Part shown: positions 9,118 to 30,773 of the stretch, piece by piece
How positions within the stretch are numbered: position 1 is the first letter of the stretch
Layout of the letters: every line of letters begins with the position of its first letter
Origin: Niveispirillum irakense DSM 11586
GTDB taxonomy: Bacteria > Pseudomonadota > Alphaproteobacteria > Azospirillales > Azospirillaceae
Length of the DNA stretch: 64,000 nucleotides
Direction: 5' to 3'
Assembly: GCF_000429645.1 (NCBI RefSeq)
Contig: NZ_AUCG01000006.1
Span: forward strand, 1-64,000
Notes under the pieces: generated by a model
What the model was told of the DNA's origin: nothing
Databases searched by the model: none
The model's input: the letters and a program-made list of their open reading frames with translations, nothing else
Made by a program: the position numbers and the translations under genes

Positions 9118-9123
9118 GCCCGG

Positions 9124-10341: not shown

Positions 10342-10350
10342 GGCCGTCCC

Positions 10351-15300: not shown

Positions 15301-18300
15301 AGCGCCGTGCCCAGATTGGTCCAGGCTTCAGGATATTGCGGCCGCAGGGCCAGGGCCTGACGGAAGGCGCGAGCCGCATCCTCTGGCTGGCCCAGCGCTT
15401 TCAGGACGCTGCCCCGGCTGTTATGGGCGATGGCGAAATCCGGATCGGCAGCAAGCGCCTGATCCACAAGCGCCAGCGCTTCCACCCCATCACCCTGCGC
15501 CAGCCGCACCACGGCCAGCAGATGCAGCGCATCGCCATGGTCGGGATCATGGGCGAGAATGGTACGATAGCCCTGTTCCGCCCCTGCCAAATCTCCCTGC
15601 TGGTGCAGGCGCAGGACATCCGCGATGGCCGGCGGCGGGCCGGGCGGAAGAAGGGGCAAGGGATTGGCAACCGGCAGGGCAACCTCCGGCACCGTCAATA
15701 GCCGCTGCAATTCCGCCCGCATCGGCGCGACGCAGGCCTGCACCGGCGCATTCGCCACAGGCATGAAAACACGCATGCAGGCAAACCAGGGACGCACAGC
15801 GGTGCCCAGACAGGTCCAGTCCGGGGTGGGCTGGAAGCGCCATGTCGGCACACCCAGGCTTGCCGCCATTTCCCCCACCGACGTGCTGGCGCTGATCACC
15901 AGATCCAGCCCGGCGGTCAGCGCCGCCGCCCCTTCCAGATCCTGTTTCAGGTCCAGATCGTCCCACCTGTGCAGGGTGATGCCATGATCGCGGGCAAGGG
16001 CCGCCACCTCTGCCTTGGTATCCCCATATTGCAGATTGATGGGGATGATACCGGGCAAAGACAGGATCGGCAGCAGATCGGCCAAAGACAGATAGGCCGG
16101 CGCGCGCACGGAATCGACCAACCCCGACCGCCAGCAGATCCCCACCCGCAGGCCTGGCCCCAGTGCGTCCACCCGCCGGGCGAAATCCGCCGCCCGGTCA
16201 GGATCGGGCGCCAGCCAGGGCCGGGCAGTCGCGAAATCCCCCAGGCGGGGCCGCAGCCAGCGCGGCAAATCCCCCATAGGGCAGTGATAATCGGCATCGG
16301 TCGGGTCCGGCGTTTCGGCCCGCACCAAAGCCCCCGGCAAAGACCGGGCAAACAGGCCCACCAGTCGGGGTGAACATTCCACCACCAGCACCGCCCCAAG
16401 CACCTGCAGGGCCGGCAGCAGGGAACCGAACATCAATTCATCGCCAATCCCCTGTTCCCGCCAGACCAGCACGCGCTTTCCCGCCACATCCTGTCCCTGC
16501 CAAGGGGGTATGGTGAAGGAACGCGCCTCCGCCTGCTGGGTAGAGTGGAAGCGCAAAGCCTGATCCGCCCAGCCCCGGTCCAGCCGGCCCAGTTCCAGAT
16601 CCAGCATGGCGCGGTTGGTACGGGCCAGCACCTCCCCTGGCCGGCGGTCCAGCAACCGGTCCAGCACGGCCACCGCCGCGGTCGGGCGACGGGCTGTTGC
16701 CAGCGCCTGGGCATAATCAATCTGGGCATTGGCATAATCGGGGGCCTCTCCGGCCACCTGCGCCAGCAGGGTCAGCCCCTCCTCCATAAAACCCGGCACC
16801 GTGCGCCCGACGGCGACCAGGGCACTGCCCAGGCTGGTTCGCGCCTCCACGGAACCGGGATTCAGGTCCAGTGCCCGGCGCAGTGGGGCCAAAGCCTCCT
16901 GCGCCCGATCGGCCGCCTTCAGCGCCTGTCCCAGATTGACCCAGCCTGCTAAAAAATTGGGATCGGCCCGCGTGGCATCCCGGTGGGCCGCGATGGCGCC
17001 CTCCTTATCCCCCCTGGCAGCCAGCACATGCCCCAGCGCATCCAGTGCGGCGGCAAAGCCGGGTTGGGCCGCCAGGCACCGGCGCAGCAGCGCCTCCGCC
17101 TCCCCATTGTCGCCCTTGTCGTTCAATGCCAGCGCGAGGTTGACCTGCGTGCCGGAACTGTCAGGCCGGTGTGTCAGTGCCTGCCGGTAGAAGGGAATGG
17201 CATCCACCGGGTCGCCCCCCATACGCAGGCAATTGGCCAGATTGACCAGGGCCGCGACATAATCCGGCTTCAGCGCCACGGCGCGGCGCATGAGCGGCAC
17301 GCCTTCCGCCGCCTGCCCTTCCTGGGATAGGGCATAGCCCAGCAGATGCAGCGCCATCACATCATCAGGATCATGGGCCAGCACGGCCCGATAAAGGGGG
17401 ATGGCCGCCGCCCGGTTTCCTGATTGATGCAGCACCATCGCGCGTTGCAGCGCGTCCGGCGATAGTGGCGCCGGGGCCGGAACGGAAACAGGCACCGGAA
17501 CCATCAGCAAGTCCCGCAGATGCCGTGCCATGGTGGGTAACATGCTGGCGGCCGGCAATCGCGGCAGGGCTTTGAAATCCCGCATGCTCCCATACCAGGG
17601 GCGCACCGCTGTGCCCAACCGGGTCCAGTCATCATCGTTGGAAAAACGCCAGACCGGTACGCCCAAGGCGCCCGCCAGTTCGCCTACCGCCGTCCCGGCT
17701 GAAATGACCAGATCAAGCGCCCCCATCAGGGCGGCCACACCATCTTGATCATCCCGCAGGTCCAACCCTTCCGGCCGCAGGAAACAGGCATCGGGATATG
17801 CGACCACCGCGGCGTCCAGTTCGGCCCGCGTCTCGGCCACGGCAAGATCATATTGCAGCGGTACCCAGCAGATACCCGGCAAGGCAAACAGGGGGGCCCA
17901 ATCGGCAAGGCGGCTGTAAAGCCCCTCCCGGTTGGCGCTGCGCAGCCCACTGCGCCAGCAAAAGCCAATGGTCAGGCGCCCGCCTGCCTCATTTTCCAGA
18001 TACCGGCGCCAGGCTGCCACCCCCGCCGGGTCTGGCACCAGCCAGGGCTTGCCATCGAAGCTGGCCAGATCACGGCGCAGGAAACCACCCAGGCTGGCCA
18101 CCGCGATCTGATAATCAGCGGCAACCCTCTCCTCAGCAGCGGCAACCGTCAGGCCGGAAAAGGACCGGCGGAGCAGGGGCACCAGCCGGGCATCACATTG
18201 CACCGTCACCGGCCCATCCAACCCGTCCAGGGGAGGCAAGAAGCCGGCAAACATAATCTCATCCCCCAGCCCCTGTTCAGGCCGGACCAGCAGGCGGGCG

Positions 18301-19097
18301 CCCTTCAATGGCCCACCCTGCCAGGGGGGCAGAGGCAGGTCGCGCCCGGCATTGCCGGGTTTGGCGCGGAACCGTTCCTCATAAAGCGGCCAGGCCTCTG
18401 CCAGCTTGCCTTTGCCGAACAGGTCCAGCGCCACATTCAGCTTCGCCACGGGCAGATGCGGGTCCAGCGACAGCGCTTTACGGAAACAGGCATCCGCATC
18501 CTCCAGCCGGCCTTGCCGTCGCAGCAGATTGCCCAGATTGGCATGGGCCATCGGAAAGCTGGAATTAATCTGCAATGCCTGCCGCAGCGCATGTTCCGCT
18601 TCCTGCGGGCGGGCCAGTTCCCCCAGCGCCGCCCCCAGATTGGACCAGCCATCGGCGCGCTGGGGGGCGATCTTCGTGGCGCGGCGGGCCGCCACCTCCG
18701 CATCAGCCGGGCGTTCCTGTTCCAGCAGCACGGCGGCCAGATTGGACCAGGCATCCGGCATATCCGCCTTCAGCGCCAAAGCCCGGCGGAACGCGGCCTC
18801 GGCATCGCGAAAGCGGCGCTGAGCCATCAACATGCCGCCCAGATTATTCTGGATGGAAGCCGATTTAGGATCGGCCTTCGCTGCCTTCTGGACCAGCGCC
18901 AGCCCTTCCTCCGCCACGCCGGTCTGCCACAGGGCCAGCCCCAGCAGGTGGGTGGCATCCACCTGTTTCGGGAGGCGTGCCAGCACAGCCCGGTAAAGCG
19001 GGATGGCGCCGGCGGCATCGCCGCCCTGGTGACGGGCGATGGCAGCCGACAGAAGGCTGGCGGGCGAGTCGGCGCTTTGGGTCTTGTCGCGGTCCAT
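12297..19097 (-). CDS. Giant four-module TPR-glycosyltransferase protein
   Basis: A 2266-residue cytoplasmic protein built from four homologous modules (about residues 1-540, 545-1140, 1155-1705 and 1715-2266). Each module has 4-7 TPR repeats (pattern W.NLG..L...G....A...R.AL...P) followed by a GT-B-like domain related to the SPINDLY/OGT and GT9 groups. The signature EQG(L/I)GDE.MF recurs at about 274, 881, 1450 and 2014. Each module later carries a G(F/L/I)(C/A)WRS block, an HR..DLD..(D/N)DL.G segment, a DLVIS..T.VGELAGALG(V/T)P.WR motif and DWT.LGTA(V/I)RPW. The last module has GDQ for GDE and IAVPTFIGE for ISA.TAVGE, so it may be catalytically altered. Neighbours make nucleotide sugars, which suggests protein (possibly flagellin) O-glycosylation. 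No signal peptide. The 3' end overlaps the 2OG oxygenase gene by 20 bases. Confidence 0.88.
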   Translation of the reverse strand: MDRDKTQSADSPASLLSAAIARHQGGDAAGAIPLYRAVLARLPKQVDATHLLGLALWQTGVAEEGLALVQKAAKADPKSASIQNNLGGMLMAQRRFRDAEAAFRRALALKADMPDAWSNLAAVLLEQERPADAEVAARRATKIAPQRADGWSNLGAALGELARPQEAEHALRQALQINSSFPMAHANLGNLLRRQGRLEDADACFRKALSLDPHLPVAKLNVALDLFGKGKLAEAWPLYEERFRAKPGNAGRDLPLPPWQGGPLKGARLLVRPEQGLGDEIMFAGFLPPLDGLDGPVTVQCDARLVPLLRRSFSGLTVAAAEERVAADYQIAVASLGGFLRRDLASFDGKPWLVPDPAGVAAWRRYLENEAGGRLTIGFCWRSGLRSANREGLYSRLADWAPLFALPGICWVPLQYDLAVAETRAELDAAVVAYPDACFLRPEGLDLRDDQDGVAALMGALDLVISAGTAVGELAGALGVPVWRFSNDDDWTRLGTAVRPWYGSMRDFKALPRLPAASMLPTMARHLRDLLMVPVPVSVPAPAPLSPDALQRAMVLHQSGNRAAAIPLYRAVLAHDPDDVMALHLLGYALSQEGQAAEGVPLMRRAVALKPDYVAALVNLANCLRMGGDPVDAIPFYRQALTHRPDSSGTQVNLALALNDKGDNGEAEALLRRCLAAQPGFAAALDALGHVLAARGDKEGAIAAHRDATRADPNFLAGWVNLGQALKAADRAQEALAPLRRALDLNPGSVEARTSLGSALVAVGRTVPGFMEEGLTLLAQVAGEAPDYANAQIDYAQALATARRPTAAVAVLDRLLDRRPGEVLARTNRAMLDLELGRLDRGWADQALRFHSTQQAEARSFTIPPWQGQDVAGKRVLVWREQGIGDELMFGSLLPALQVLGAVLVVECSPRLVGLFARSLPGALVRAETPDPTDADYHCPMGDLPRWLRPRLGDFATARPWLAPDPDRAADFARRVDALGPGLRVGICWRSGLVDSVRAPAYLSLADLLPILSLPGIIPINLQYGDTKAEVAALARDHGITLHRWDDLDLKQDLEGAAALTAGLDLVISASTSVGEMAASLGVPTWRFQPTPDWTCLGTAVRPWFACMRVFMPVANAPVQACVAPMRAELQRLLTVPEVALPVANPLPLLPPGPPPAIADVLRLHQQGDLAGAEQGYRTILAHDPDHGDALHLLAVVRLAQGDGVEALALVDQALAADPDFAIAHNSRGSVLKALGQPEDAARAFRQALALRPQYPEAWTNLGTALMDQCRPAEAVTAHQRALKQRPDYPRALANLGVAQHGLGQYAQAAGTLRQALALDDNLADAWSYLGLCLARQGNIAEAMACQDRALAADPGFAEAEVNRSLLLVQKGDGPAARDALDRALALRPGFGRALYNHGLLSLALGDLKAGWQGHEARFDSGEVRGVALLPLPRWQGEPLAGRRLLVQREQGLGDEVMFAGLYRHLGDLDGDVVVEADPRLIGLFSRAFPFARFVPEGEGMAHAPDLAIPAGSLPSLVRPALAGWDGAAFLSPLPDKAAAGADRLAALGPGLKIGLCWRSQLQTADRVDAYTTLADWLPLARLPGVQVVSLQYDGAVEEIAAFEAAHGITIHRWPDLDQKNDLEAVAGLMMGLDLVISTATAVGELAGALGVPVWRLSGALDWTRLGTGVRPWFASQRIITVPAAGKVVDQVPVVVRLLTSLGQETPPAPPPLPVGTVEELLGQGVEHQRGGDPQAAMPFYRAVLDQAPEQPVALHLLGLAHHQMGELAAAEPLMRRALTVEPAYTAAWVNFGNLLQDRDQPAAAEKAYRQALAQQPVAPEVWSNLGNALRRLNRREDALAAQKRALSLKPGWVVALANMAELLRDMDRPEEAADAYRQALAAGGEDALLRTGLGEALRMSGDLAGAEAAHRQALADDPALADAWNNLGRVESLRGLDDAARRHYDKALSLAPDLPAALYNRSLLDLADGDLTGGWRGYASRFAGSPDVRGRDIDLPVWRGEPLDGRRLLVWGEQGIGDQIMFAAAYPALLALGGRVVMETDPRLVGLFTRSFPQALVRAAQPRPTDADLAIAAGDLAGILWPHLADIAPPMPLLCADASAQGQWAARLAALGPGLKVGLAWRSSSITVERALSYTDVTTLAPLARVPGMHLVDLQLGATEAEKERAAKAGLTLHRFDDLDLRDDLDGLAALIAGLDLVIAVPTFIGELAGALGTPTWRLSGPDWTSLGTAIRPWYPAMRLLAREGEGANQAVARAVSLLLSATRN

Positions 19098-19274: not shown

Positions 19275-20300
19275 ATGAACGCGATCGCCTCCCGCCCTGC
19301 CACCCTGTTCAAGGGTGCCTCCATCATGATCACCGGCGGGACCGGTTCGTTCGGGCGGCGCTTTGCCCGCTGGCTGTTGACCAACGCCAAACCGCGCCGG
19401 CTGGTCATCTTCTCCCGTGATGAGTTCAAACAATATGAGATGCAGCAGCAATTCGCCGATCTGGACAAACAGGGCGTGCTGCGCTTTTTCATTGGGGATG
19501 TGCGCGACCAGCAGCGCCTGGACATGGCGATGCGGGAAATCGACTATGTGGTCCATGCCGCCGCACTGAAACATGTGCCGACGGCGGAATATAACCCGCT
19601 GGAATGTATCCGCACCAATATCAATGGCGCGGAAAATGTTGTGCATGCCGCCATCTATAACAAGGTGAAGCAGGTGGTGGCCCTGTCCACCGATAAGGCG
19701 GCCAGCCCGATCAATCTCTATGGCGCGTCCAAGCTGGCCTCGGACAAGATTTTCGTGGCGTCGAACAATCTGTCCGGCTCCGTTGGCACGCGCTTTGCCG
19801 CCGTGCGCTACGGCAATGTGGTCGGCTCCCGTGGCAGCGTCGTACCCTTTTTCCGCAAACTGGTGGCGGAAGGGGCGACCAGCCTGCCCATCACCGACGA
19901 GCGCATGACCCGTTTCTGGATCACATTGGATAAGGGTGTGGAGTTCGTCGCCTCTTGCTTCACCATGATGCAGGGGGGCGAGATTTTCGTGCCCAAGATC
20001 CCGTCCATGCGCATCGTGGATCTGGCCCGCACCATGGCGCCAAACCTGCCGCACCGGGTTGTCGGCATCCGGCCAGGGGAAAAGCTGCACGAGATCATGA
20101 TCACGGAGGATGATGCCCGCCAGACGGTGGAACTATCCGACCGCTATGTGATCGAACCCGCCTTCAACTGGTGGGATCGCGGTTCCTACGCCAAGCATGA
20201 CGCCAAGCCCGTGCCGGACGGGTTCAGCTACCGGTCCGACACCAATCCCCATTGGCTGACGGGGGAGGAGATGCTGGCCCTGCTGGACCGCCCGGCATGA
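19275..20300 (+). CDS. pseB: UDP-GlcNAc 4,6-dehydratase (inverting), PseB
   Basis: A 341-residue extended SDR that removes water from UDP-GlcNAc and inverts C5, giving UDP-2-acetamido-2,6-dideoxy-beta-L-arabino-hexos-4-ulose, the first step towards pseudaminic-type sugars. The NAD(P) site is ITGGTGSFGRRF (about 17-28). The PseB hallmarks SRDEFKQYEM, HAAALKHVP(T) and the modified catalytic triad region STDKA..P.N.YGASKLASD are clear. Length is normal (about 333). It opens an operon in which the next start codon overlaps its stop (ATGA at 20297). No strong Shine-Dalgarno precedes the ATG at 19275. Confidence 0.93.
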   Translation: MNAIASRPATLFKGASIMITGGTGSFGRRFARWLLTNAKPRRLVIFSRDEFKQYEMQQQFADLDKQGVLRFFIGDVRDQQRLDMAMREIDYVVHAAALKHVPTAEYNPLECIRTNINGAENVVHAAIYNKVKQVVALSTDKAASPINLYGASKLASDKIFVASNNLSGSVGTRFAAVRYGNVVGSRGSVVPFFRKLVAEGATSLPITDERMTRFWITLDKGVEFVASCFTMMQGGEIFVPKIPSMRIVDLARTMAPNLPHRVVGIRPGEKLHEIMITEDDARQTVELSDRYVIEPAFNWWDRGSYAKHDAKPVPDGFSYRSDTNPHWLTGEEMLALLDRPA

Positions 20301-21532
20301 GCGGGCGCTTCATCCCCTATGGCCGGCAATATCTGGACGAAGCGGATATCCAGGCCGTTACCCAGGTGTTGCGCGGCGACTGGCTGACCCAGGGGCCCAG
20401 CGTCGGCTGGTTTGAGAAAAGTTTCGCCGCCCATGTCGGTGCACGCCATGGCGTGGCCTGCGCCAATGGCACGGCCGCGCTGCATCTGGCCCTGCTGGCG
20501 CTGGGCATCGGGCCGGGCGATGCAGTGATCGTGCCCAGCATCACCTTCCTGGCCACCGCCAATGTCGTGCGCCATGTCGGCGCGGATGTCGTCTTCGCCG
20601 ATGTCGATCCCCATACCGGACTGATGCGCCGCCAGGATGCGGAAGCGGCACTTAAGCGGGCTGCCACCAGGGGATGGCGCGTGCGGGCCATTATGCCCGT
20701 GCATCTGGCGGGGCAACCCGCCGATATGGCCGGACTGGCCGATCTGGCTGCCGCCAAAGGGCTGGTTCTGGTCGAAGATGCGTGCCACGCCGCGGGCACG
20801 CAACTGGCTGGTGCGGATGGCAGCACCCTGATGGCTGTGGGGGCCTGCGACCGGTCGGCCATGGCCTGTTTCTCCTTCCACCCGGTCAAGACGATGGCGA
20901 CCGGCGAAGGCGGCATGGTCACCACCAATGATGATGAACTGGCCGCCGCCCTGCGCCGTCATGTCAGCCATGGGATGAGCCGGGATGAAGCAGATTTCAC
21001 CCGCACCGACGCCGCCTACGGTGCCGATGGCAAGCCCAATCCCTGGTATTATGAAATGGCGTCACCCGGCTTCAATTACCGGCTGACCGATATCCAGGCG
21101 GCCTTGGGCCTGTCGCAACTGGCCAAGCTGGACCGGTTCGTGGCGGCACGGCGCACGCTGGTGGAGACCTATGATCGGGCCTTCGCCCCGCTCGCCCCCT
21201 GGCTGCGCCCAGCGGCGCGGGTGGCGGATGCGGCACCCGGCTGGCACCTTTATCCGGTGCTGGTGGATTATGCCGCCTTGGGCCTGGACCGCAGCGCCTT
21301 CATGGGTCTGTTGCGGCAACAGGGGATCGGGACCCAGGTGCATTACATCCCCGTCCATAGCCAGCCCTATTACCAGCAGCTTTACGGGCCCCTGGACTTG
21401 CCCGGCGCGGAAAGCTGGTATCGGCACTGCCTGTCCCTGCCGCTGTTTGCCGGCATGGCCATGACCGATCTGGAACGGGTGGTCGCGGCGGTGACCGATG
21501 TGGTGACAAGCCGCGTCCCCGCATCTCGATAA
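20297..21532 (+). CDS. pseC: PseC-like nucleotide-sugar 4-aminotransferase
   Basis: A 411-residue PLP enzyme of the DegT/DnrJ/EryC1 family. It converts the PseB 4-keto product to UDP-4-amino-4,6-dideoxy-N-acetyl-beta-L-altrosamine. The start is the ATG at 20297, which overlaps the pseB stop and gives the usual N-terminus FIPYGRQYLDEADI. The PLP-binding lysine lies in FSFHPVKTMATGEGGM (about 192-207), and NGTAALHLAL and VEDACHA are typical. The C-terminal HYIPVHSQPYYQ matches PseC. It is translationally coupled to pseB and followed 23 bases later by an SDR gene. Confidence 0.92.
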   Translation: MSGRFIPYGRQYLDEADIQAVTQVLRGDWLTQGPSVGWFEKSFAAHVGARHGVACANGTAALHLALLALGIGPGDAVIVPSITFLATANVVRHVGADVVFADVDPHTGLMRRQDAEAALKRAATRGWRVRAIMPVHLAGQPADMAGLADLAAAKGLVLVEDACHAAGTQLAGADGSTLMAVGACDRSAMACFSFHPVKTMATGEGGMVTTNDDELAAALRRHVSHGMSRDEADFTRTDAAYGADGKPNPWYYEMASPGFNYRLTDIQAALGLSQLAKLDRFVAARRTLVETYDRAFAPLAPWLRPAARVADAAPGWHLYPVLVDYAALGLDRSAFMGLLRQQGIGTQVHYIPVHSQPYYQQLYGPLDLPGAESWYRHCLSLPLFAGMAMTDLERVVAAVTDVVTSRVPASR

Positions 21533-21555: not shown

Positions 21556-22320
21556 ATGCCCGCCATCCTGAACCCCATGGACATGACCGGCCGCCACATC
21601 CTGGTCACCGGTGCCTCCGCCGGGATTGGCCGGGCAACGGCCATCATGCTGTCGCGGCTGGGTGCCAGGGTCACCATCACCGGCCGGGACGAAAGCCGGC
21701 TGGCCGCCACATTCGCCGCCCTGGCCGGTGACGGGCACCATCACGCCGCCTTCGATCTGTCAGCGATTGATGCCATCCCGGCCTGGATGAAGGAGCGGGC
21801 ACGCCTGACCGCCCCCTTCCACGGCATTGCCCATTGCGCTGGCATCCAGACCCTGCGCCCCATCCGCATTTTTCAGAGCGATTTCTTTGAAGAGGTGATG
21901 CGCACCAACTTGGGTGCCGCCCTGGCGCTGGCCAAGGGGCTGCGGCAGAAGGGGGTGAAGGCGGACAAGGCCAGCCTTGTCTATATTTCCTCCACCGCCG
22001 CCACGGCATCATCGCCGGCCAATGTCGTCTATGCCGCCGCCAAGGGCGGCATCATTGCCGCCACCAAGGGCCTGTCGGCGGAATTGCTGCCTGATGCGAT
22101 CCGGGTTAATTGTGTCGTGCCCAGCATCGTGATGACGGAACTGATCGAACGCGGCTTTGAAAAGCTGAATGAGGAACAGATCCAGCATCTGGAAAAGCTG
22201 CAGCCCCTTGGTTTCGGCCACCCGGACGATGTGGCCCATGCGATCAGTTTCCTGCTGTCCGACGCTGCCCGCTGGATCACCGGCACATCCATGGTGGTGG
22301 ATGGGGGCCGTACGGCATGA
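21556..22320 (+). CDS. SDR oxidoreductase of the sugar operon (PtmA/FabG-like)
   Basis: A 254-residue classical short-chain dehydrogenase. It has the cofactor motif VTGASAGIGRAT (about 16-27), the N-A-G equivalent HCAGIQ, catalytic Ser in YISSTAATAS and the YAAAK motif (Tyr/Lys), and ends ITGTSMVVDGGRTA. The start is the ATG at 21556; a TTG seven codons earlier is also in frame. Campylobacter PtmA, a flagellin-modification SDR, has a comparable place in a nonulosonate-type cluster, but the substrate here is unknown. Its stop overlaps the next start (ATGA at 22317), so it is tightly coupled to the Rieske gene. Confidence 0.85.
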   Translation: MPAILNPMDMTGRHILVTGASAGIGRATAIMLSRLGARVTITGRDESRLAATFAALAGDGHHHAAFDLSAIDAIPAWMKERARLTAPFHGIAHCAGIQTLRPIRIFQSDFFEEVMRTNLGAALALAKGLRQKGVKADKASLVYISSTAATASSPANVVYAAAKGGIIAATKGLSAELLPDAIRVNCVVPSIVMTELIERGFEKLNEEQIQHLEKLQPLGFGHPDDVAHAISFLLSDAARWITGTSMVVDGGRTA

Positions 22321-22808
22321 CAGATGGCTGGGCGCTGCTGGGACGTGCCGCCGATCTGGCAGAACCGGGGCAATGGATCACCGGCTGGCTGGGCGCGGTG
22401 CCGGTGGTGGTGCGCAACTTTGCCGGCACGCCGCGCGGCTTCCGCAATATCTGTTCCCACCGCTTCGCCCAGATGCTGACCGCCCCCACCGGCAAGGGGC
22501 CGCTGCGCTGCCCCTATCATGCCTGGGTCTATGATGCCGATGGCGTACCCAAGGCCATCCCCTTCAACGATACGGATTTCCATCTGGGTGATGCCGACCG
22601 ACAGGCGCTGGCCCTGCCGGCGGTGGCGGTGCTGGTGACGGGTGGACTGGTCTTCACCCATCTCCAGCCCGATGCCGATCCGGCACCCGTTATGGGCTGG
22701 CCGCTCACGGATGGCCCCTTCCCCCAGCACCTGCCGGATGGGTCGCTGATCGGTCCGGATGCGGCGATCCTGGAACGGCGCAGCAGCCAACGGGGCTGTG
22801 GATGCTGA
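22317..22808 (+). CDS. Stand-alone Rieske [2Fe-2S] domain protein
   Basis: A 163-residue protein with a complete Rieske motif: C46-x-H48 (ICSHR) and C65-x2-H68 (CPYHAW), which would carry a [2Fe-2S] cluster. It begins like the Rieske part of an aromatic-ring or sugar oxygenase (LGRAADLAEPGQW) and continues to the usual domain-exit strand (GGLVFTHLQPDAD). It then ends in a short Cys-containing tail with no catalytic domain. Its stop overlaps the start of the following oxygenase by 7 bases (ATGCTGA). It probably delivers electrons to the next gene product as a split oxygenase. A frameshift in a once single gene is a less likely alternative, because the second protein has its own normal N-terminus. 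Confidence 0.8.
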   Translation: MTDGWALLGRAADLAEPGQWITGWLGAVPVVVRNFAGTPRGFRNICSHRFAQMLTAPTGKGPLRCPYHAWVYDADGVPKAIPFNDTDFHLGDADRQALALPAVAVLVTGGLVFTHLQPDADPAPVMGWPLTDGPFPQHLPDGSLIGPDAAILERRSSQRGCGC

Positions 22809-23677
22809 ATTACGACCAGCCGCCGCCCCGCCGCCGCCTGCTGCCCGCCCATTGGTTTTATGCGGCGGACAGTTTCGCCCGCGAAAGCGAAGCGATGAGC
22901 CACCGCCTGCCCTGGCGCTATGCCGGGCTGGCGGGCGATTCTCTGGTCGACGGTGTGGAAGTCGAGGCGTGCGGTGGGTTTTTGTTCCGCCGCCAGCGAA
23001 TGGATGCGCCAGCGCTGGCCGATTGGTTGGGGCCGTTTGCGACACGGCTGGACTTAATGTCCCCTGCCCTATCGGCCCCAGTAGGGGCCGATGCCGTGGA
23101 ATTTGCCGCCAACTGGAAGATCCTGGTGGAGAACACGCTGGATGATTTCCACGGCTCCACCGTGCATCCCCAGACCATCCACCCGGCGGTGGATGCCGAC
23201 TGGCGTCAGCACCTGCACACCGAACGCCATGGCCCGCACAGCCATTCAAGCTGGAAACTATCCGCCGCCACGGCGCAATGGTGGGAAAAGCTGGTGGCAC
23301 GCGGCGGTCTTGCCCGCTTCGCCGCCCAGGACCGCTATGACCATACGTACATCTTCCCCGACCTCTATGTCGCCAGTTTCCACGGTGCCATGGTAATTGT
23401 GCATCGGGTTGTGCCTTTGGCGGTGGACCGGACAAGGCTGGAATGGCGCACCTTCCTTCCCAGCCACAATCCAGGCGACCGCAAGCGCGATGCCTTCCGC
23501 CGGTCCCTTGCCGGACAGTTGGCCCTTTCCGCCCGACAAGTGATTGAGGAAGATCGGCCCTTATGTGAAATGGTGCAGGCTGGCCGTGCCGGTGCCACCG
23601 GCCCCGGCATGCTGGGCTGGCGGGAACAGCGTATCGGCGATGTGCATGACGCCCTGGCCACCCTTCTGGACATTTGA
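22802..23677 (+). CDS. Rieske-type oxygenase catalytic subunit lacking its own Rieske domain
   Basis: A 291-residue protein with the catalytic half of a Rieske non-haem iron oxygenase. The mononuclear iron site is in NWKILVENTLDDFHG (bridging D114, ligand H117) and VH (H122), and a C-terminal EEDRPLCEMVQ segment offers the Asp ligand. The N-terminal 47 residues (LLPAHWFYAADSF...) resemble the normal start of such enzymes. Where the Rieske domain should follow, however, the chain jumps from YAGLAGDSL straight to VEVEACGGFLFRR, the strand that normally comes after it. The missing domain is supplied by the overlapping upstream gene. CMP-Neu5Ac hydroxylase is a known Rieske enzyme acting on a sugar, so oxidation of a nucleotide sugar is plausible. 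Confidence 0.8.
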   Translation: MLNYDQPPPRRRLLPAHWFYAADSFARESEAMSHRLPWRYAGLAGDSLVDGVEVEACGGFLFRRQRMDAPALADWLGPFATRLDLMSPALSAPVGADAVEFAANWKILVENTLDDFHGSTVHPQTIHPAVDADWRQHLHTERHGPHSHSSWKLSAATAQWWEKLVARGGLARFAAQDRYDHTYIFPDLYVASFHGAMVIVHRVVPLAVDRTRLEWRTFLPSHNPGDRKRDAFRRSLAGQLALSARQVIEEDRPLCEMVQAGRAGATGPGMLGWREQRIGDVHDALATLLDI

Positions 23678-23686
23678 GGCCATTGA

Positions 23687-24244
23687 ATGACCCAATCCCT
23701 GTCCTTCCGCCGCCCCACCCCGGATGATGCGGCCTTGCTGCTGGGCTGGCGGCGGCTGCCGGAAATTTCCAGCCAATCCTTTTCCGATGTGCCGGATGAT
23801 CTGGACCGGCAGCGCGACTGGCTGGCCCGCAGTGCGACGCGCAGCGATTTCCACCACCGCATCATCCAGGTGGATGGGGTGGATGTCGGCTATGGCAGCA
23901 TCACCATCACCCAGCCCGATTGGGGCGTGGGCACCATCGGCGTTTATATGGGTGACCGGCGGGGGCGCATCGGCATCGGTGCGCTGAACTTCGCCCCCAT
24001 GCTGAACCATTGTTTCTACACGCTAGGCCTGCGCAAGCTGGTAAACCAGATTTTCGCCGATAATGAGCGGGTGCATAAGGGCCAAGCCATGCTGGGCTAT
24101 CGCCATGTCGGCGTGCTGCGGGCGCACGCGGTGAAGAACGATGTGCCCCGCGATGTGCATCTGTTTGAAATGCTGGCAGCAGACTGGTTCGCCATCCGCC
24201 CCCGTTTCGGACTGATGGCCGATATGGATGGGCGGGTCTGGTAA
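23687..24244 (+). CDS. GNAT acetyltransferase, PseH-like
   Basis: A 185-residue GNAT-fold acetyltransferase. It shows the usual opening SFRRPTPDDAALLLGWRRLPEI and the acetyl-CoA region GVYMGDRRGRIGIGALNFAPML, followed by FYTLGLRKLVNQIFADNERVHKGQAMLGYRHVG split over the last strands. In PseB-PseC clusters the third enzyme, PseH, N-acetylates the 4-amino group, and this gene fits that slot. It is the last gene of the plus-strand sugar operon, 9 bases after the Rieske oxygenase. The later pathway genes pseG, pseI and pseF are not in the window. Confidence 0.8.
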   Translation: MTQSLSFRRPTPDDAALLLGWRRLPEISSQSFSDVPDDLDRQRDWLARSATRSDFHHRIIQVDGVDVGYGSITITQPDWGVGTIGVYMGDRRGRIGIGALNFAPMLNHCFYTLGLRKLVNQIFADNERVHKGQAMLGYRHVGVLRAHAVKNDVPRDVHLFEMLAADWFAIRPRFGLMADMDGRVW

Positions 24245-24299: not shown

Positions 24300-25991
24300 T
24301 CAGCCCTTCACCAGGGCTGTCCCCGGCGCCAGCAACAGATGCAATACGCCATCGCTTGGTATGGCGCTGGTGCGCACGCCAAGGGGGCCTAGTGCTGCCA
24401 GATCGGCACGGGCGGAATTGGCCAGTTCCACACGCAGCCGCGTGCCATGTCGTGTTACGCGGCGGATATTATCCGCTCCCCCCAGGGCTGCCAGACCCGC
24501 CGCGCTTAAGGCCACTGCGGTTACCGGGGCCGCAGCCTCGGTCGGTACCGGTGCTGGGCTTCCTGCCTGGGCCAGCGCATCGCGGATTTCCACGGCCACG
24601 CTATCGGCGATCGGCCCCAGCACCACCTGCAATGCCTTGTCAGACGGGCGGATGATACCGCGGGCACCCAGTGCCTTCAGGGCAGTGTCGTCCACCTTGC
24701 CCTGATCAACGACGATCAGGCGCAGGCGGGTCGTGCAGGCGCTGACGGAGGTAAGGTTGGCGCCACCGCCCAATGCTGCAACAAAGCCCGCCCCCCGACC
24801 ACCGGCCTGAAGGGCACTGGCGGCGGCAGTGTTTACCGGCGCCTCATCCTCACGTCCCGGCGTCTTCAAATTGAAGCGGCGGATAACGAAGCTGAACACC
24901 GCGTAATAAAGCGCGAAATAGACCAGCCCAACCGGCAGCAGCAGCAGCGGCTTGGTCGCCTTGCCATAATTCAGCACATAATCAAACAGACCGGCGGAGA
25001 AGCCGAAGCCCAGCTTCACCCCCAGCACATCCATCGCCACCATGGCGATGCCGGTCAGCACCGCATGCAGCACATATAAGGCCGGGGCCAGGAACATGAA
25101 GCTGAATTCGATCGGCTCCGTCACCCCGGTCAGCAGCGCCGTCAATGCCAGGGAGAACAGCATGCCGCCCACGGCCTTGCGGCGATCCGGCAGGGCGGCG
25201 CGGTACATCGCCAAGCAAGCCGCCGGCAGGCCGAACATCATCACCGGGAAAAACCCGGCCATGAAACCGCCCGCCGTGGGGTCACCGGCGAAGAAGCGGC
25301 GCAGATCGCCAGCCGTGCCGTTAAAATCCCCCTGCACGAACCAGAAGACATTGTTCAGGATATGATGCAGGCCAGTCACAAGCAGCAGCCGGTTCAGCAC
25401 GCCGAAAATGAACAGGCCGATGCCGCCCGCCTCGGCGATGCCATGGCTCAACCCATCCACGCCGGCGCTGATATGGGCAAAACCCAGCCCGATAATGACA
25501 GCCAGCACCAGACCCGCCGCCCCCGCAACAATGGGCACAAAACGGCGACCACCGAAGAAGGCCAGATATTCCGGCAGCTTGATGGTGGAGAAGCGGTTAT
25601 AGAACACGCCCCCGATCAGACCGGAAATGATGCCGACCGGCACATCCAGCCGCGTCACCGCCTTGGTCTTCCAGGCAGCGATGGCGAGATCACCAACCAC
25701 CTCTGGCGGCACGGTCAGCAGGGCCTTGCCGGCTTCATTAGCCACCAGGAAACAGACGATGCCGGCCAAGGCCGCTGCCCCATTGCCATCCCGGGCATAG
25801 CCCGTGGCCACGCCGATGGCAAACAGCAGGCCGAGATGCGCAAACAATGCGTCACCAGCAGCCGACAGGAAGCCGATATCCAGCAAATCAGGCTGGCCCA
25901 GGCGCAGCATCAGACCGGCCACAGGCAGAACGGCGATGGGCAGCATCAGGGCGCGGCCCAGCGGCTGCAGCTTTTCCAGGATCGCCTTCAT
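24300..25991 (-). CDS. nagE: N-acetylglucosamine PTS transporter IIC-IIB (NagE-like) with an extra IIB-like domain
   Basis: A 563-residue PTS permease that takes up and phosphorylates N-acetylglucosamine. Residues 1-375 are the membrane IIC domain (LMLPIAVLPVAGLMLR opening, TGLHHILNN, GVTEPIEFSFMFLAP). A IIB domain at about 400-475 has the phospho-cysteine C419 in SACTTRLRL. A second IIB-like repeat at about 497-560 has the same NIRRV..(T)RLRV pattern, but His515 stands where the cysteine should be, so it cannot phosphorylate by the normal route. The IIA domain is absent because it is fused to HPr and EI in the upstream gene. Start and stop codons overlap (ATGA at 25988-25991), and it is the last gene of the operon. 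Confidence 0.9.
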   Translation of the reverse strand: MKAILEKLQPLGRALMLPIAVLPVAGLMLRLGQPDLLDIGFLSAAGDALFAHLGLLFAIGVATGYARDGNGAAALAGIVCFLVANEAGKALLTVPPEVVGDLAIAAWKTKAVTRLDVPVGIISGLIGGVFYNRFSTIKLPEYLAFFGGRRFVPIVAGAAGLVLAVIIGLGFAHISAGVDGLSHGIAEAGGIGLFIFGVLNRLLLVTGLHHILNNVFWFVQGDFNGTAGDLRRFFAGDPTAGGFMAGFFPVMMFGLPAACLAMYRAALPDRRKAVGGMLFSLALTALLTGVTEPIEFSFMFLAPALYVLHAVLTGIAMVAMDVLGVKLGFGFSAGLFDYVLNYGKATKPLLLLPVGLVYFALYYAVFSFVIRRFNLKTPGREDEAPVNTAAASALQAGGRGAGFVAALGGGANLTSVSACTTRLRLIVVDQGKVDDTALKALGARGIIRPSDKALQVVLGPIADSVAVEIRDALAQAGSPAPVPTEAAAPVTAVALSAAGLAALGGADNIRRVTRHGTRLRVELANSARADLAALGPLGVRTSAIPSDGVLHLLLAPGTALVKG

Positions 25992-28540
25992 GCGCCAAAC
26001 TCCCGGGCCAGGGTACGAACATCGGCCGCCGTGGCGCAGGTCAGTGCGGCAGCGGCATGGGCCTTGGCCTGATCCAGCGTCAGGCTGGACACAAGCGCCT
26101 TGATTTCAGGAACGATGGCAGGCGTAGCCGACAATTCCGCCACGCCCAACCCCACCAGGATAGGCACGGCCAACGGGTCCGAGGCCAGGCTGCCGCACAC
26201 ACCCGTCCATTTGCCATGGCGCGCCGCGCCCTGGCAGGTCTGCGCAATCAGGCGCAGCACCGACGGGTGCAGACCGTCGATGGAGCCGGCCACGGCAGCA
26301 TTGCCGCGATCCATGGCGAGGGAATATTGCGTCAGGTCATTGGTGCCAATGGACAGGAAATCGGCCTCTGCCGCCAGCAGGTCGGCTGTCACCGCCGCCG
26401 CCGGGGTTTCCACCATCACGCCCAGTTCCACCTTCTCGGTGATGCCCATCTCCGCCCGGACGCGGTCCAGCACGGCGCGCACACGCCGCAACTCGTCCAC
26501 GCCTGCGATCATCGGCACCATGATGCGGCACTGGCCCACCGGCTGTACCGACAGGATGGCGCGGATCTGATCCTCCAGCATGGAAGGATAGGCGAAGCCG
26601 ACGCGGATGCCGCGCAGGCCCAAAGCCGGGTTCTCCTCCGCTGGGATCGGCAGATAGGGTGCCGGCTTGTCACCGCCAATATCCAGCAGCCGCACGATCA
26701 GCGGCCGGCCTTCCAGGGCGGTGGCAATGGCTTGGTAATCGGCAGCCTGTTCGGCCACGGTCGGCGCCGTTGCCCGTTCCAGGAACAGGAACTCAGTCCG
26801 CAGCAGGCCGCTGCCCTCCGCGCCATTGGCTATCGCCTGCTTGGCATCGGCTTCCGATCCCAGATTGGCGAACACTTCGATCCGGGTGCCGTCGGCGGTA
26901 TGGCAGGGCTTGCCCGCCGCGGCCTTCGCCGCCGCGCGCCGCGCGGCAATCACCGCCAGCTTGTCGCGCGCAGCATTCAGCGTGGCTTCATCCGGGGCGA
27001 CATGCAGGCAGCAGCCGGTCGCATCCAGGATCAGGTCCGTACCGTCACCCACGTGTCGCAGTGCCGGGCCAATAGCGACCAGCGCCGGCAGCCCCATGCT
27101 GGCCGCCAGGATGGCAACATGGGAAGTAGGGCCGCCGCGCTCAACGACAAAGCCGACAACATTTTCCGTATCCAGCGCCATGACCTGCGACGGCAGCAGA
27201 TCTTCCGCCACCAGCACCGTGCCGGGCGGGAAGGTGAGCGGCGCATCCGCAACCCCTTCCAGCACGGCCAGAACCCGGCGCTCCAGATCCAGCATATCAT
27301 CGGCGCGTTCAGCCAGATGGGCATCGCCGGTAGCGCGCAGGGCATCGGCCTGGGGCCTTACCGCCTGCCGCCACGCATGGCCGGCGCTGGCGCCGCCCTT
27401 GATTGCCCGCGCCGCCTGCTCAACCAACCCTTCATCGGCCAGCATGGCGCGGTGGGCGCCGATGATGGCTTTCTGCGGGCCGGTAGCATGGGCGGCTTCC
27501 CCGTCCAGCCGGGTTACCAGGGTGGCAAGGGCTTCGTCCAGCCTTGCCTGTTCCACCGTCGGGCCCTTGCCCTCCGGCGGCACATCGATTTCCGGCAGGC
27601 GGAAGGCACGGGCCTGACCTACCGCCAGACCGGGCGACGCCGTCACGCCAGCCAGCTTGCCGTCCGCCGGAATATGCGTCACGGCGGGCTTTGCAACTGG
27701 GGCAGCAGCAACCGGCTTGGCCTTGGCCGCCGTCGCCGGGTCGGCTTTCTCACCCATGCCGCTTTCGATCAGCGCGACGACGGCACCCAGGGCCGCGTCC
27801 GCATCGGCACCCTGGGCGGTGACAGTGATGCTGTCGCCCAGACGGATTGCCAGCGTCAGCAAGCCCACGGGGCTGCGCGCATTCATCGCCTTGTCACCTT
27901 TGGCGATGGTGACACTGGCGCCATAGGGGGCCAGGGCTTCCTTGATGCGGGCCGCCGGACGGGCGTGGATACCATGCGCCAGCGGGACAATCACGGTGTG
28001 AGAGATGCCCTCCCCGCCCGCCAGCTCCGCAGTCGTAACTGGCGCCTGGGCGGTGAGGATGAAGATATAGTCCCCCGCAGTGACCGGCCCATTTTCCCGC
28101 GTGCGGGTCAGGCTGTAGCCCTGCGTCTCCAGCAGCAAAACGGGGGTGATGACAGCCGGCGCCGCCTGAACGATGGCGTCCAGATCAAACCGGATCAGCA
28201 CATCACCACGCGAGACCCGGTCCCCCTGGGCGACGAGGGGCGTGAAGCCCGTCCCGCCCAAGGCCACCGTATCGATGCCGATATGCATCAGGATTTCCGC
28301 GCCCTCGGCGGCACGGATGGTGACGGCGTGTCCGCTCTCATTCAAGGCGGTGACAACGCCGTCGCAGGGAGCAACAAGTTGCCCGCTCGTGGGGTCGATG
28401 GCCACGCCATCCCCCAGCATGCGGCCAGCGAAAACAGCGTCGGGCACTTCATCGAGAACCGTCAGCCAACCGGTCAGGGGGGCGCCGATGGCGATGGACG
28501 CCCCGGCGATACCGTCGATCATTGTGGTCGGTGGTGTCAT
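25988..28540 (-). CDS. PTS multiphosphoryl protein IIA-HPr-EI (NagF type)
   Basis: About 850 residues combining three phosphotransfer steps for the GlcNAc PTS. The N-terminal IIA-Glc-like domain has the active His in LMHIGIDTV (about residue 86). The HPr domain has its His in GIHARPAAR (about 193) and regulatory-type MNARSPVGLL. The enzyme I part runs from about 290 to the end, with its phospho-His in RGGPTSHVAI (about 474), PEP-binding GLLRTEFLFLER and the C-terminal CGSLASDP. The start is the ATG at 28540; a TTG four codons earlier lies too near the GGAG site. With nagE it makes a self-sufficient phosphorelay independent of general PTS proteins. Confidence 0.93.
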   Translation of the reverse strand: MTPPTTMIDGIAGASIAIGAPLTGWLTVLDEVPDAVFAGRMLGDGVAIDPTSGQLVAPCDGVVTALNESGHAVTIRAAEGAEILMHIGIDTVALGGTGFTPLVAQGDRVSRGDVLIRFDLDAIVQAAPAVITPVLLLETQGYSLTRTRENGPVTAGDYIFILTAQAPVTTAELAGGEGISHTVIVPLAHGIHARPAARIKEALAPYGASVTIAKGDKAMNARSPVGLLTLAIRLGDSITVTAQGADADAALGAVVALIESGMGEKADPATAAKAKPVAAAPVAKPAVTHIPADGKLAGVTASPGLAVGQARAFRLPEIDVPPEGKGPTVEQARLDEALATLVTRLDGEAAHATGPQKAIIGAHRAMLADEGLVEQAARAIKGGASAGHAWRQAVRPQADALRATGDAHLAERADDMLDLERRVLAVLEGVADAPLTFPPGTVLVAEDLLPSQVMALDTENVVGFVVERGGPTSHVAILAASMGLPALVAIGPALRHVGDGTDLILDATGCCLHVAPDEATLNAARDKLAVIAARRAAAKAAAGKPCHTADGTRIEVFANLGSEADAKQAIANGAEGSGLLRTEFLFLERATAPTVAEQAADYQAIATALEGRPLIVRLLDIGGDKPAPYLPIPAEENPALGLRGIRVGFAYPSMLEDQIRAILSVQPVGQCRIMVPMIAGVDELRRVRAVLDRVRAEMGITEKVELGVMVETPAAAVTADLLAAEADFLSIGTNDLTQYSLAMDRGNAAVAGSIDGLHPSVLRLIAQTCQGAARHGKWTGVCGSLASDPLAVPILVGLGVAELSATPAIVPEIKALVSSLTLDQAKAHAAAALTCATAADVRTLAREFGA

Positions 28541-28566
28541 GCTCAGGGCCAAAACTCCGGTTGGCG

Positions 28567-29712
28567 TCAGGCGATGCGGGTGCCGGCGATCCAGGTCCCC
28601 GCAGGATGGAAATCAGCCGTCAGGCGAACCCAATCGGCGGCAAGACCGGGCGACAGCGTCCCCCGCTGATGCGAAAGCCCAAGGAAGGCCGCCGGCGCTG
28701 ATGATGCCATGATGGCAGCCTCTGCGGGCGACCGGCCCAGACGGTTGATGGTATTGCGGAAAGCAGCCGTCATGTCGATGGCGGCACCAGCCAGCGTACC
28801 ATCCTCACCGACGCAGCGGCCATCCCGTACCAGGATACGGCGGCCATGCAGGTCAAATTCCGTCACATCCACGCCAACGCAGGACATCGCATCGGTAACC
28901 AGCATGAAACGGTCAAGCGGTCGCGCCCGCAACGCGATGCGGAATGCGGCATCATGGGCATGGAAACCATCGACAATCAGCCCGCAATAGGCAGTCTGAT
29001 TATCCAGCGACGCCCCGACAACACCGGGCGAACGATGCACCAGGGGCGACATGGCATTATAGAGATGCGTCACCCCCGTCATGCCGGCGGCGAAAGCAGC
29101 GGTCGCTGTATCATAATCAGCATCGCTGTGGCCGATCGCCAGGATGACCCCCAGCTCGCGCAGCCGGGCGATGTCATCCAGCGGCACCAGTTCCGGGGCC
29201 AGCGTCAACATTACCTTGCCGCGACGGGGCTTCTCAAACAAGGCCAGCATTTCCGGGTCCAGGCGGCGGAACTTGCCCGCATCATGGATACCCTTGCGCG
29301 TCACGCTGATGATCGGCCCTTCGACATGCACCCCCAGGAACCCGGGCACACCAGCGGAAAACGCTTCATCTGCCGCGTCCAGCGCCCGGCCAATCACCGC
29401 CGGCACATCGCTGATCAATGTCGCCATGAAGCCGGTGGTGCCATATCGGGCATGGGCGCGGCCGATGGTGGCAATACCCTCCACCGTTGGCTCATCATTG
29501 AACAACACGCCGCCGCCGCCATTGACCTGCGTGTCGATAAAACCAGGGACCAGCCAACCCCCCTCCAGATCGACCGTTTCAGCAGCGGTGGCATCGGCGA
29601 CGGAGAGCGGTGCGACAGACGCGATATGCCCGTCGGCCACCGCAATCGCGGCACCATCCAGAATGCCGGCCGGTGTCACCACCCGGCCATTGACAAAGCG
29701 GAACCCGGTCAT
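28567..29712 (-). CDS. nagA: N-acetylglucosamine-6-phosphate deacetylase
   Basis: A 381-residue amidohydrolase that removes the acetyl group from GlcNAc-6-P to give glucosamine-6-P. Metal-site and substrate motifs are in order: PGFIDTQVNGGGG (about 54-66), VHVEGPIIS (Glu ligand), GHSDADYD, THLYNAMSPLVHRSPG and VTDAMSCVG with the catalytic Asp. Length is normal. Its start overlaps the stop of the SIS deaminase (29709-29712), and the PTS fusion gene starts 27 bases downstream, so the four nag genes are one operon read leftwards. Confidence 0.95.
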   Translation of the reverse strand: MTGFRFVNGRVVTPAGILDGAAIAVADGHIASVAPLSVADATAAETVDLEGGWLVPGFIDTQVNGGGGVLFNDEPTVEGIATIGRAHARYGTTGFMATLISDVPAVIGRALDAADEAFSAGVPGFLGVHVEGPIISVTRKGIHDAGKFRRLDPEMLALFEKPRRGKVMLTLAPELVPLDDIARLRELGVILAIGHSDADYDTATAAFAAGMTGVTHLYNAMSPLVHRSPGVVGASLDNQTAYCGLIVDGFHAHDAAFRIALRARPLDRFMLVTDAMSCVGVDVTEFDLHGRRILVRDGRCVGEDGTLAGAAIDMTAAFRNTINRLGRSPAEAAIMASSAPAAFLGLSHQRGTLSPGLAADWVRLTADFHPAGTWIAGTRIA

Positions 29713-30773
29713 CGCGTTTCGGTCACCTTGGAGAGGAAGAGGGGACGATCCGGATCATGCCCACGCGCCAGGGACAGGGCATTGGCCATCTGATAGAAGC
29801 TCTGGATCATCAGGATCGGCTCAATCACCGGGTGCGCGGCCAGGGCCGGCAGACCGGAACCACCGTCGGCCTTCGCGTCGGCCAGGCACACATTGGCGCC
29901 GCGCTCGGCAAAAAGCGATGCCGCCTCACGCACGCCGTTGCCGGCAGCGTCAGAACCGGCAAAAGCCAGAACGGGAAAACCGTCGCGCACAATGGCCATC
30001 GGACCATGGCGAACTTCAGCGGCGCTGAATGCTTCCGCGTGCAGGCCGCAGGTTTCCTTGAACTTCAAGGCCGCTTCCTGGGCGATGGCAAAGCTGTAGC
30101 CACGACCGATGGTGAACAGGTTGCGCGCATCGCGCAGAGCGGCGACAGCAGCAGACCAATCCAGACCATTGGCACGCTCCAGCAGCGCAGGCAGAGCCTG
30201 CACGGCGTCACGCATGCCATCATCATCCGCCCATTCCGCCACCAGGGCCGCAAGCCCAGCCAGGGAAACGATGTAGGATTTTGTTGCCGCAACCGACTTT
30301 TCCGGCCCGGCCTTCAAACCGATGCAGGTATCCGCCAACGCGGCCAGGGGCGAGCTTTCGTCATTGACGAAGGCAACCACGCGGGCACCGGCCTTTTTAT
30401 AAGCCTCCGCCGTTGCCAGCAGATCCGGACTGCGACCACTTTGCGAAATGGCAATGCAAAGCGCGCCCGCCGCCACAACCGGCGCGTCAAAAACCGAAAC
30501 CACAGAGGGTGCCGCGGAAGCCACAGGCACACCCACCCGCGTTTCGATCAGGTATTTGCCATAGGTCGCGGCATGATCGGAAGAACCACGGGCCACCGTT
30601 ACGACCAGCGACGGCGGCGCCGACCGCAAGGACACACCCAAGGCACGGAGTGCGTCGCCATTACCTTCCAGCAGGCGCCGAACAGCCACACCCGCTTCCG
30701 CCGCCTCTGACGACATCAGCGTGGTACCTTGCCCCCCGGCCACGTTCTTCTGATCAGCGACCACCATCATCAT
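29709..30773 (-). CDS. SIS-type glucosamine-6-phosphate deaminase (NagB-II)
   Basis: A 354-residue protein with two SIS domains (about 45-170 and 200-330), similar to the isomerase half of GlmS but without a glutaminase domain. Such NagB-II enzymes convert glucosamine-6-P to fructose-6-P and ammonia, which completes GlcNAc catabolism. Typical blocks are TVARGSSDHAATYGKYLIE, SQSGRSPDLL, AATKSYIVSL and EVRHGPMAIV. The start is uncertain among the clustered ATGs at 30773 and a downstream ATG (TTLMSSEAAEAG) preceded by AAGG. It is the first of four overlapping nag genes, with a TTGGTATT motif about 42 bases upstream. Confidence 0.88.
   Translation of the reverse strand: MMMVVADQKNVAGGQGTTLMSSEAAEAGVAVRRLLEGNGDALRALGVSLRSAPPSLVVTVARGSSDHAATYGKYLIETRVGVPVASAAPSVVSVFDAPVVAAGALCIAISQSGRSPDLLATAEAYKKAGARVVAFVNDESSPLAALADTCIGLKAGPEKSVAATKSYIVSLAGLAALVAEWADDDGMRDAVQALPALLERANGLDWSAAVAALRDARNLFTIGRGYSFAIAQEAALKFKETCGLHAEAFSAAEVRHGPMAIVRDGFPVLAFAGSDAAGNGVREAASLFAERGANVCLADAKADGGSGLPALAAHPVIEPILMIQSFYQMANALSLARGHDPDRPLFLSKVTETR

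What the first reader, a model, noticed from the sequence alone, without database searches (positions are those of the whole stretch)
22317..23677. Split Rieske oxygenase in which the Rieske domain is a separate upstream gene
The first gene is a complete Rieske domain (C46/H48, C65/H68) with no catalytic domain. The second has a normal oxygenase N-terminus and iron site (D114, H117, H122), but the Rieske domain is cleanly missing between YAGLAGDSL and VEVEACGGFLF. The two overlap by ATGCTGA, which implies coupled synthesis. Both halves keep the domain-exit strand, so this is not a simple frameshift of one gene. I know of no described sugar-modifying oxygenase with this two-subunit form.
Basis: partly seen in the sequence, partly recalled or inferred. 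Interest (0 to 1): 0.75.

Follow-up and report, generated by a model that had tools for sequence, protein, structure and literature searches.

The report
Rieske oxygenase split into two genes
An iron enzyme of a bacterial sugar pathway that is normally one protein is encoded here as two separate genes, one for the electron-relay cluster and one for the reactive iron site; the split is conserved and looks functional, and the nearest described precedent is a caffeine-degrading enzyme.

Summary
ORF1 (22317-22808) is a Rieske domain without a catalytic domain; ORF2 (22802-23677) is a Rieske-oxygenase catalytic domain without a cluster. They overlap by ATGCTGA in a row pseB-pseC-SDR-ORF1-ORF2-GNAT. 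It is not an artefact: among 82 family genomes ORF1 and ORF2 occur in the same 30; all 31 ORF1 and 32 ORF2 aligned keep the metal ligands; dN/dS is 0.10-0.26 in eight genome pairs; in two genomes of another family the halves are convergent genes on opposite strands. The halves share segments on both sides of what each lost, which favours duplication with complementary loss over plain gene fission. Best reading: an obligate two-part oxygenase, ORF1 supplying electrons and ORF2 the oxygen chemistry, in a pseudaminic-acid-type pathway. Interaction, substrate and reductase are not shown; the ORF2 model failed and no complex was modelled. One genome shows both halves in one frame, but its assembly has a frame break in another oxygenase gene, so this is weak. 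NdmCDE already separates the Rieske domain, there fused to the reductase, so this is a new variant of a known kind.

The parts
22317..22808 (+). ORF1, free-standing Rieske [2Fe-2S] protein, 163 aa
   Evidence: Pfam Rieske 1.9e-11; AlphaFold2 model pLDDT 69, pTM 0.71, best listed fold matches are oxygenase large subunits
22452..22520 (+). cluster ligands C46, H48, C65, H68 of ORF1
   Evidence: invariant in 31 of 31 ORF1 aligned
22802..22808 (+). ATGCTGA overlap of the ORF1 stop and ORF2 start
   Evidence: 7-base overlap in all 7 junctions of the genus that were measured
22802..23677 (+). ORF2, oxygenase catalytic subunit without Rieske cluster, 291 aa
   Evidence: Pfam Ring_hydroxyl_A 4.8e-24
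22937..22951 (+). place in ORF2 (residues 46-50) where the cluster-binding part is missing
   Evidence: HMM positions 40-126 absent
23141..23167 (+). D114, H117, H122 of ORF2: bridging acid and two iron ligands
   Evidence: invariant in 32 of 32 ORF2 aligned
23552..23554 (+). D251, probable third iron ligand
   Evidence: invariant in 32 of 32; role inferred
21556..22320 (+). SDR oxidoreductase, overlaps the ORF1 start by ATGA
   Evidence: Pfam adh_short_C2; beside the pair in g1, g3 and g11 loci examined
23687..24244 (+). GNAT acetyltransferase, PseH-like
   Evidence: PseH 44.2 bits, under the cut-off of 93.1
19275..20300 (+). PseB, UDP-GlcNAc 4,6-dehydratase (inverting)
   Evidence: 537.8 bits, cut-off 407.75
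20297..21532 (+). PseC, aminotransferase
   Evidence: 470.2 bits, cut-off 423.5

Best explanation
ORF1 and ORF2 are the two subunits of one Rieske-type non-heme iron oxygenase. ORF1 receives electrons from a reductase encoded elsewhere and holds them on its [2Fe-2S] cluster. It docks on ORF2 where the Rieske domain of the neighbouring subunit would sit in a normal trimer and passes electrons by way of D114 to the iron held by H117, H122 and D251, which activates O2. The split is tolerable because in ordinary Rieske oxygenases the useful transfer already runs between subunits. The pair most likely arose from duplicated whole oxygenases by complementary loss, one copy losing the iron domain and the other the cluster. 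It acts in a pseudaminic-acid-type sugar pathway, on the sugar or on an acyl group bound for it. Shown: gene anatomy, conserved ligands, co-occurrence, purifying selection, shared segments. Inferred: docking, electron path, order of events, substrate.
For: Complementary domains with all metal ligands kept: 31 of 31 ORF1, 32 of 32 ORF2. ORF1 (1e-60 or better) and ORF2 (1e-60 or better) are in the same 30 of 82 family genomes; the next matches, 6.6e-54 and 1.5e-43, are intact oxygenases (thresholds set after seeing the gap). dN/dS 0.10-0.25 (ORF1) and 0.11-0.26 (ORF2) in eight pairs. Convergent neighbours in G473 and G474, still side by side. Overlap or spacing of -7 to +13 bases in 26 of 32 genomes. 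Shared HMM segments: in the 15 g3 genomes ORF1 reaches 168-179 while ORF2's second part starts at 117-127. G432 holds SDR - complete oxygenase - complete oxygenase - GNAT in the same order. Transfer between subunits: 12.2 angstrom to the neighbour against 44 within a chain in CntA (PMC7948474, passages).
Against: No complex, activity, substrate or reductase is shown. ORF2 modelled at pLDDT 34.9, unusable. In the trees G432's two oxygenases do not pair with ORF1 and ORF2 respectively, so that locus only pictures a possible ancestor. With G473 and G474 added, ORF1 is not one clade in the best tree (single clade not rejected, p-AU 0.088), so ORF1 may have arisen twice. A second oxygenase matches in all 30 genomes, so a mixed assembly is possible. 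The one-frame case in G064 may be an assembly or real indel.
Confidence: 0.66

Rival explanations
1. ORF2 assembles with the intact Rieske oxygenase of the same genome, whose Rieske domain feeds the ORF2 iron in a mixed trimer or hexamer; ORF1 is a ferredoxin-like relay for one or both.
For: Every one of the 30 genomes with the pair has at least one further match to the oxygenase, often a few kb away. A review lists alpha3-alpha'3 heterohexamers among known assemblies (PMC12445004, passages).
Against: ORF1 and ORF2 are gained and lost together and lie side by side in 28 of 32 genomes (26 spaced -7 to +13 bases; 2 convergent 7 bases apart), whereas the window's intact oxygenase is on another contig. 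Many family genomes have the intact one alone.
Confidence: 0.18
2. The pair has lost O2 chemistry and one or both halves now serve another role, for instance a structural or binding protein in the pathway.
For: No activity is known, and no FAD_binding_6 reductase lies on the window's contig.
Against: All cluster ligands and all iron ligands, and the bridging acid, are invariant under purifying selection.
Confidence: 0.07
3. Frameshift, pseudogene or sequencing error in one ordinary oxygenase gene.
For: The ends overlap in different frames, as after an indel; one relative (G064) reads through in one frame.
Against: The same organisation is in 26 genomes with the halves overlapping or up to 13 bases apart, in two with about 1.3 kb between them, and in two on opposite strands; the halves share segments, which a frameshift does not give; dN/dS is low. 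Complete plasmids of Azospirillum carry both as separate annotated genes.
Confidence: 0.01
4. A member of the NdmCDE kind, in which the Rieske domain sits on the reductase.
For: ORF2 resembles NdmC in lacking the Rieske domain.
Against: ORF1 has no flavin, NADH or plant-type ferredoxin domain at 163 aa, and none of the six genes scanned in the row matches a GST model.
Confidence: 0.02

Closest known systems
NdmCDE, 7-methylxanthine N7-demethylase of Pseudomonas putida CBB5 (PMC4408171, passages)
   Same: The catalytic protein (NdmC) lacks a Rieske cluster, which is supplied by another polypeptide.
   Different: There the Rieske domain is part of the reductase NdmD and a GST-like protein NdmE is needed; here it is a small free protein, with no reductase or GST-like gene in the row. 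Sequence relation to NdmC was not tested.
CntA carnitine monooxygenase and related quaternary-amine oxygenases (GbcA)
   Same: Best solved relative by sequence for ORF2 (6y9c, 4e-5); GbcA is ORF1's best NCBI family hit (52.1 bits, far under its cut-off of 670). Intact relatives carry Glu at the bridging position like CntA.
   Different: CntA is one polypeptide with both domains; ORF2 has Asp at the bridging position.
Rieske ferredoxins of three-component dioxygenases
   Same: Small free Rieske protein.
   Different: They feed the oxygenase's own Rieske cluster; ORF2 has none. ORF1 matches oxygenase large subunits best among the listed families and folds.
Alpha3-alpha'3 Rieske oxygenases (listed in PMC12445004, passages)
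   Same: Two related large subunits in one enzyme, a possible starting point.
   Different: As recalled, their subunits are complete; here each has lost one domain.
CMP-Neu5Ac hydroxylase (CMAH), recalled only
   Same: Rieske-type enzyme acting on an activated nine-carbon sugar.
   Different: Not compared here.

Membership tests
Rieske oxygenase | Rieske cluster motif C-x-H ... C-x2-H | tested here: met
   In ORF1 only; 31 of 31, in 0 of 32 ORF2 by pattern
Rieske oxygenase | Catalytic domain with bridging acid and 2-His-1-carboxylate iron site | tested here: met
   In ORF2; Pfam 4.8e-24, ligands 32 of 32
Rieske oxygenase | Both domains in one polypeptide | tested here: not met
   Two genes in 31 of 32 genomes; one frame in G064, uncertain
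Rieske oxygenase | C3 assembly with intersubunit electron transfer | not testable with these tools
   No complex modelled; ORF2 model failed
NdmCDE | Rieske domain carried by a reductase | tested here: not met
   ORF1 matches only Rieske above cut-off
NdmCDE | GST-like partner required | tested here: not met
   None of the six genes scanned in the row matches GST; need for a partner untested
Pseudaminic acid pathway locus | PseB and PseC | tested here: met
   Above cut-offs
Pseudaminic acid pathway locus | PseH, PseG, PseI, PseF | tested here: inconclusive
   GNAT PseH-like under cut-off; PseI above cut-off near the pair in relative L041; the window's own genome not searched for PseG, PseI, PseF

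The most novel reading that the evidence does not exclude
A Rieske oxygenase that became an obligate two-part enzyme through duplication and complementary loss: one copy reduced to a free electron-relay subunit, the other to a cluster-free oxygenase, used in nucleotide-sugar biosynthesis. The halves occur as overlapping, separated and convergent genes, and the relay subunit may have arisen twice.
Probability: 0.5. Interest if true: 0.72.

Novelty: new variant of a known kind. Interest (0 to 1): 0.6.

Why it matters
In Rieske oxygenases the cluster and the iron that work together sit on different subunits; a gene-level split is a natural test of that rule, and lets each half be mutated, metal-loaded or swapped alone. 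It also points to an uncharacterised oxidation step in bacterial pseudaminic-acid-type sugars, among others in soil and plant-associated Azospirillum.

Tried and rejected
Frameshift or pseudogene: rejected.

The ORF1 model (pLDDT 69, best of five; the others 46.7-54.5) was used only to say that it resembles oxygenase Rieske domains.

Orthology of G432's two complete oxygenases with ORF1 and ORF2: not supported by the trees. Of six genomes outside the family reached through the SDR, two hold the pair (G473, G474), one two complete oxygenases (G432), one a different oxygenase (G355), and two no oxygenase in the stretches read (G140, 12 kb; G227, 10 kb of contig C226, though it has an intact one on C125).

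ORF1 tails as remnants of the catalytic domain: the 15 g3 tails alone score 0.3-7.5 bits against the intact HMM, the best of 202 reported shuffles (300 made) 4.4, so weak alone. G473's tail did not exceed its shuffles against the g3 tails; G474's was missed by my cutting pattern.

One frame in G064 as proof of partnership: withdrawn as strong evidence after finding that another oxygenase gene of G064 changes frame midway.

A first pattern count gave the third ligand in 29 of 32; the alignment gives 32 of 32.

Full report
What is in the window. ORF1 (22317-22808, 163 aa) and ORF2 (22802-23677, 291 aa) overlap by ATGCTGA. ORF1 matches Pfam Rieske, ORF2 the ring-hydroxylating catalytic domain (and VanA_C), neither the other's domain. 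Before them on the + strand lie PseB (19275-20300), PseC (20297-21532) and an SDR (21556-22320), after them a GNAT (23687-24244). PseB and PseC exceed the NCBI cut-offs; the GNAT resembles PseH below its cut-off.

What each half lost and what both keep. Against an HMM of 12 intact relatives (362 positions), the window's ORF1 covers 29-145 and ORF2 covers 8-39 (weakly, 0.4 bits) and 127-359. In the 15 g3 genomes ORF1 reaches 168-179, while ORF2 keeps a front part up to 39-62 (8.5-12.7 bits) and resumes at 117-127. Together they make a whole oxygenase, and they share segments. A simple cut of one gene gives no shared segments; duplication with complementary loss does. ORF2 of g3 (327-339 aa) and g11 (317-329 aa) is longer than in the window's genus (291-292 aa for complete copies), with extra residues where the Rieske fold would be but without its ligands; I read this as a remnant.

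How widespread. In 82 genomes of the family, ORF2 at 1e-60 or better is in 30 (8 of g1, the window's genus; 15 of g3; 7 of g11). ORF1 at 1e-60 or better is in the same 30; the next matches are intact oxygenases (1.5e-43 for the ORF2 query, 6.6e-54 for ORF1). The cut-offs were set after seeing these gaps, and the ORF1 profile included some of these genomes. In G072 the halves are on different contigs. ORF2 at 1e-38 was in 4 of 385 genomes drawn from the class, all of this family, and at 1e-50 in 1 of 299 drawn from the phylum, the window's own. The SDR as bait (8 of 385 at 1e-50; 5 of 39 at 1e-60 in the family of G432) led to G473 and G474 of another family, which hold the pair. That makes 32 genomes. 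Contig lengths and titles tie four g1 genomes to Azospirillum sp. RU38E, strain AAP38, a Niveispirillum MAG and an Azospirillum MAG, and two g3 genomes to Azospirillum plasmids. In the two plasmid records opened, the genes are annotated as 'Rieske 2Fe-2S domain-containing protein' and 'RHO alpha subunit C-terminal catalytic domain-containing protein', between SDR and GNAT genes.

Arrangements. Of 32 genomes, 26 have the halves in tandem with spacing from -7 to +13 bases; G036 and G046 have 1318 and 1319 bases between them, in G046 with a gene that I read as TnpB-like; G473 and G474 have them convergent, 7 bases apart; G072 has them on two contigs; G064 has them in one frame of 448 codons. In G064 a second oxygenase gene changes frame near its residue 166, so an indel, real or of assembly, may also explain the single frame.

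Signs of function. C46, H48, C65, H68 are in 31 of 31 ORF1, and D114, H117, H122, D251 in 32 of 32 ORF2 (G072's ORF1 was not aligned). dN/dS is 0.10-0.25 for ORF1 and 0.11-0.26 for ORF2 in eight pairs; G473/G474 is near synonymous saturation.

Trees. ORF2 is one clade against intact relatives (30 rows, 100/100; bootstrap not settled there; 11 rows with G473 and G474, 100/100). ORF1 is one clade without G473 and G474 (29 rows, 98/93). With them, those two go with G432's oxygenases (90/80 and 91/87), and a single clade is not rejected (p-AU 0.088). Branches are long and the Rieske alignments have 113-119 columns.

A possible ancestor. G432 has SDR - complete oxygenase - complete oxygenase - GNAT in the same order. 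The trees do not make the first the sister of ORF1 and the second of ORF2, so it pictures the starting layout without proving descent.

How it would work. In CntA, cluster and iron are 44 angstrom apart in a chain but 12.2 angstrom apart across the interface, with a bridging acid (PMC7948474, passages). A review describes C3 assemblies with transfer between subunits (PMC12445004, passages). A free Rieske protein could therefore stand in for the neighbour's Rieske domain. ORF2 has Asp at the bridging position, the five intact relatives shown have Glu. The genome's three FAD_binding_6 places are on contigs C8 (two) and C4, none on the window's contig; both on C8 lie beside other oxygenases. The electron donor is unknown. 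The substrate is inferred from context only; genes annotated or matched as ketoacyl-ACP synthase III near several of the loci make an unusual acyl group one option.

Known or new. NdmCDE is a described split (PMC4408171, passages), differing as listed. Eight searches of an open-access library listed no paper whose title or abstract start concerns this pair or Rieske oxygenases in pseudaminic acid synthesis; two searches listed 15 of 289 and 15 of 160 papers, and most subscription papers are not held. This is weak evidence of absence.

Noticed in passing
L069 (G432) 8388-10585: Two complete Rieske oxygenase genes in tandem, overlapping by 28 bases, between an SDR and a GNAT gene.
   Followed up: partly
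L002, L041 11098-12201, L047 8587-9714 and others: An intact Rieske oxygenase, about 30-36% identical to ORF2, accompanies the pair in all 30 family genomes as a further match, often within a few kb; it too sits near pse-type genes in L041.
   Followed up: partly
L115 (G064) 1223-2312: The second oxygenase gene of G064 changes frame midway, by real mutation or by assembly error.
   Followed up: partly
L049 7182-8306: A gene that reads as TnpB-like lies between ORF1 and ORF2; in L111 a gene annotated TnpB lies just upstream of the SDR.
   Followed up: no
L069 5486-6559, L088 7200-8288, L111 2220-3314: Ketoacyl-ACP synthase III-like genes recur beside the SDR, GNAT or oxygenase genes, suggesting an unusual acyl group on the sugar.
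   Followed up: no
12297-19097 (-): A 2266-residue protein of many TPR repeats with a weak glycosyltransferase-9 match, divergent from pseB; perhaps a glycosyltransferase for the sugar.
   Followed up: no
24300-30773 (-): From reading the translations: PTS permease, PTS phosphotransfer fusion, N-acetylglucosamine-6-phosphate deacetylase-like and SIS-domain genes, an amino-sugar uptake row next to the sugar operon.
   Followed up: no
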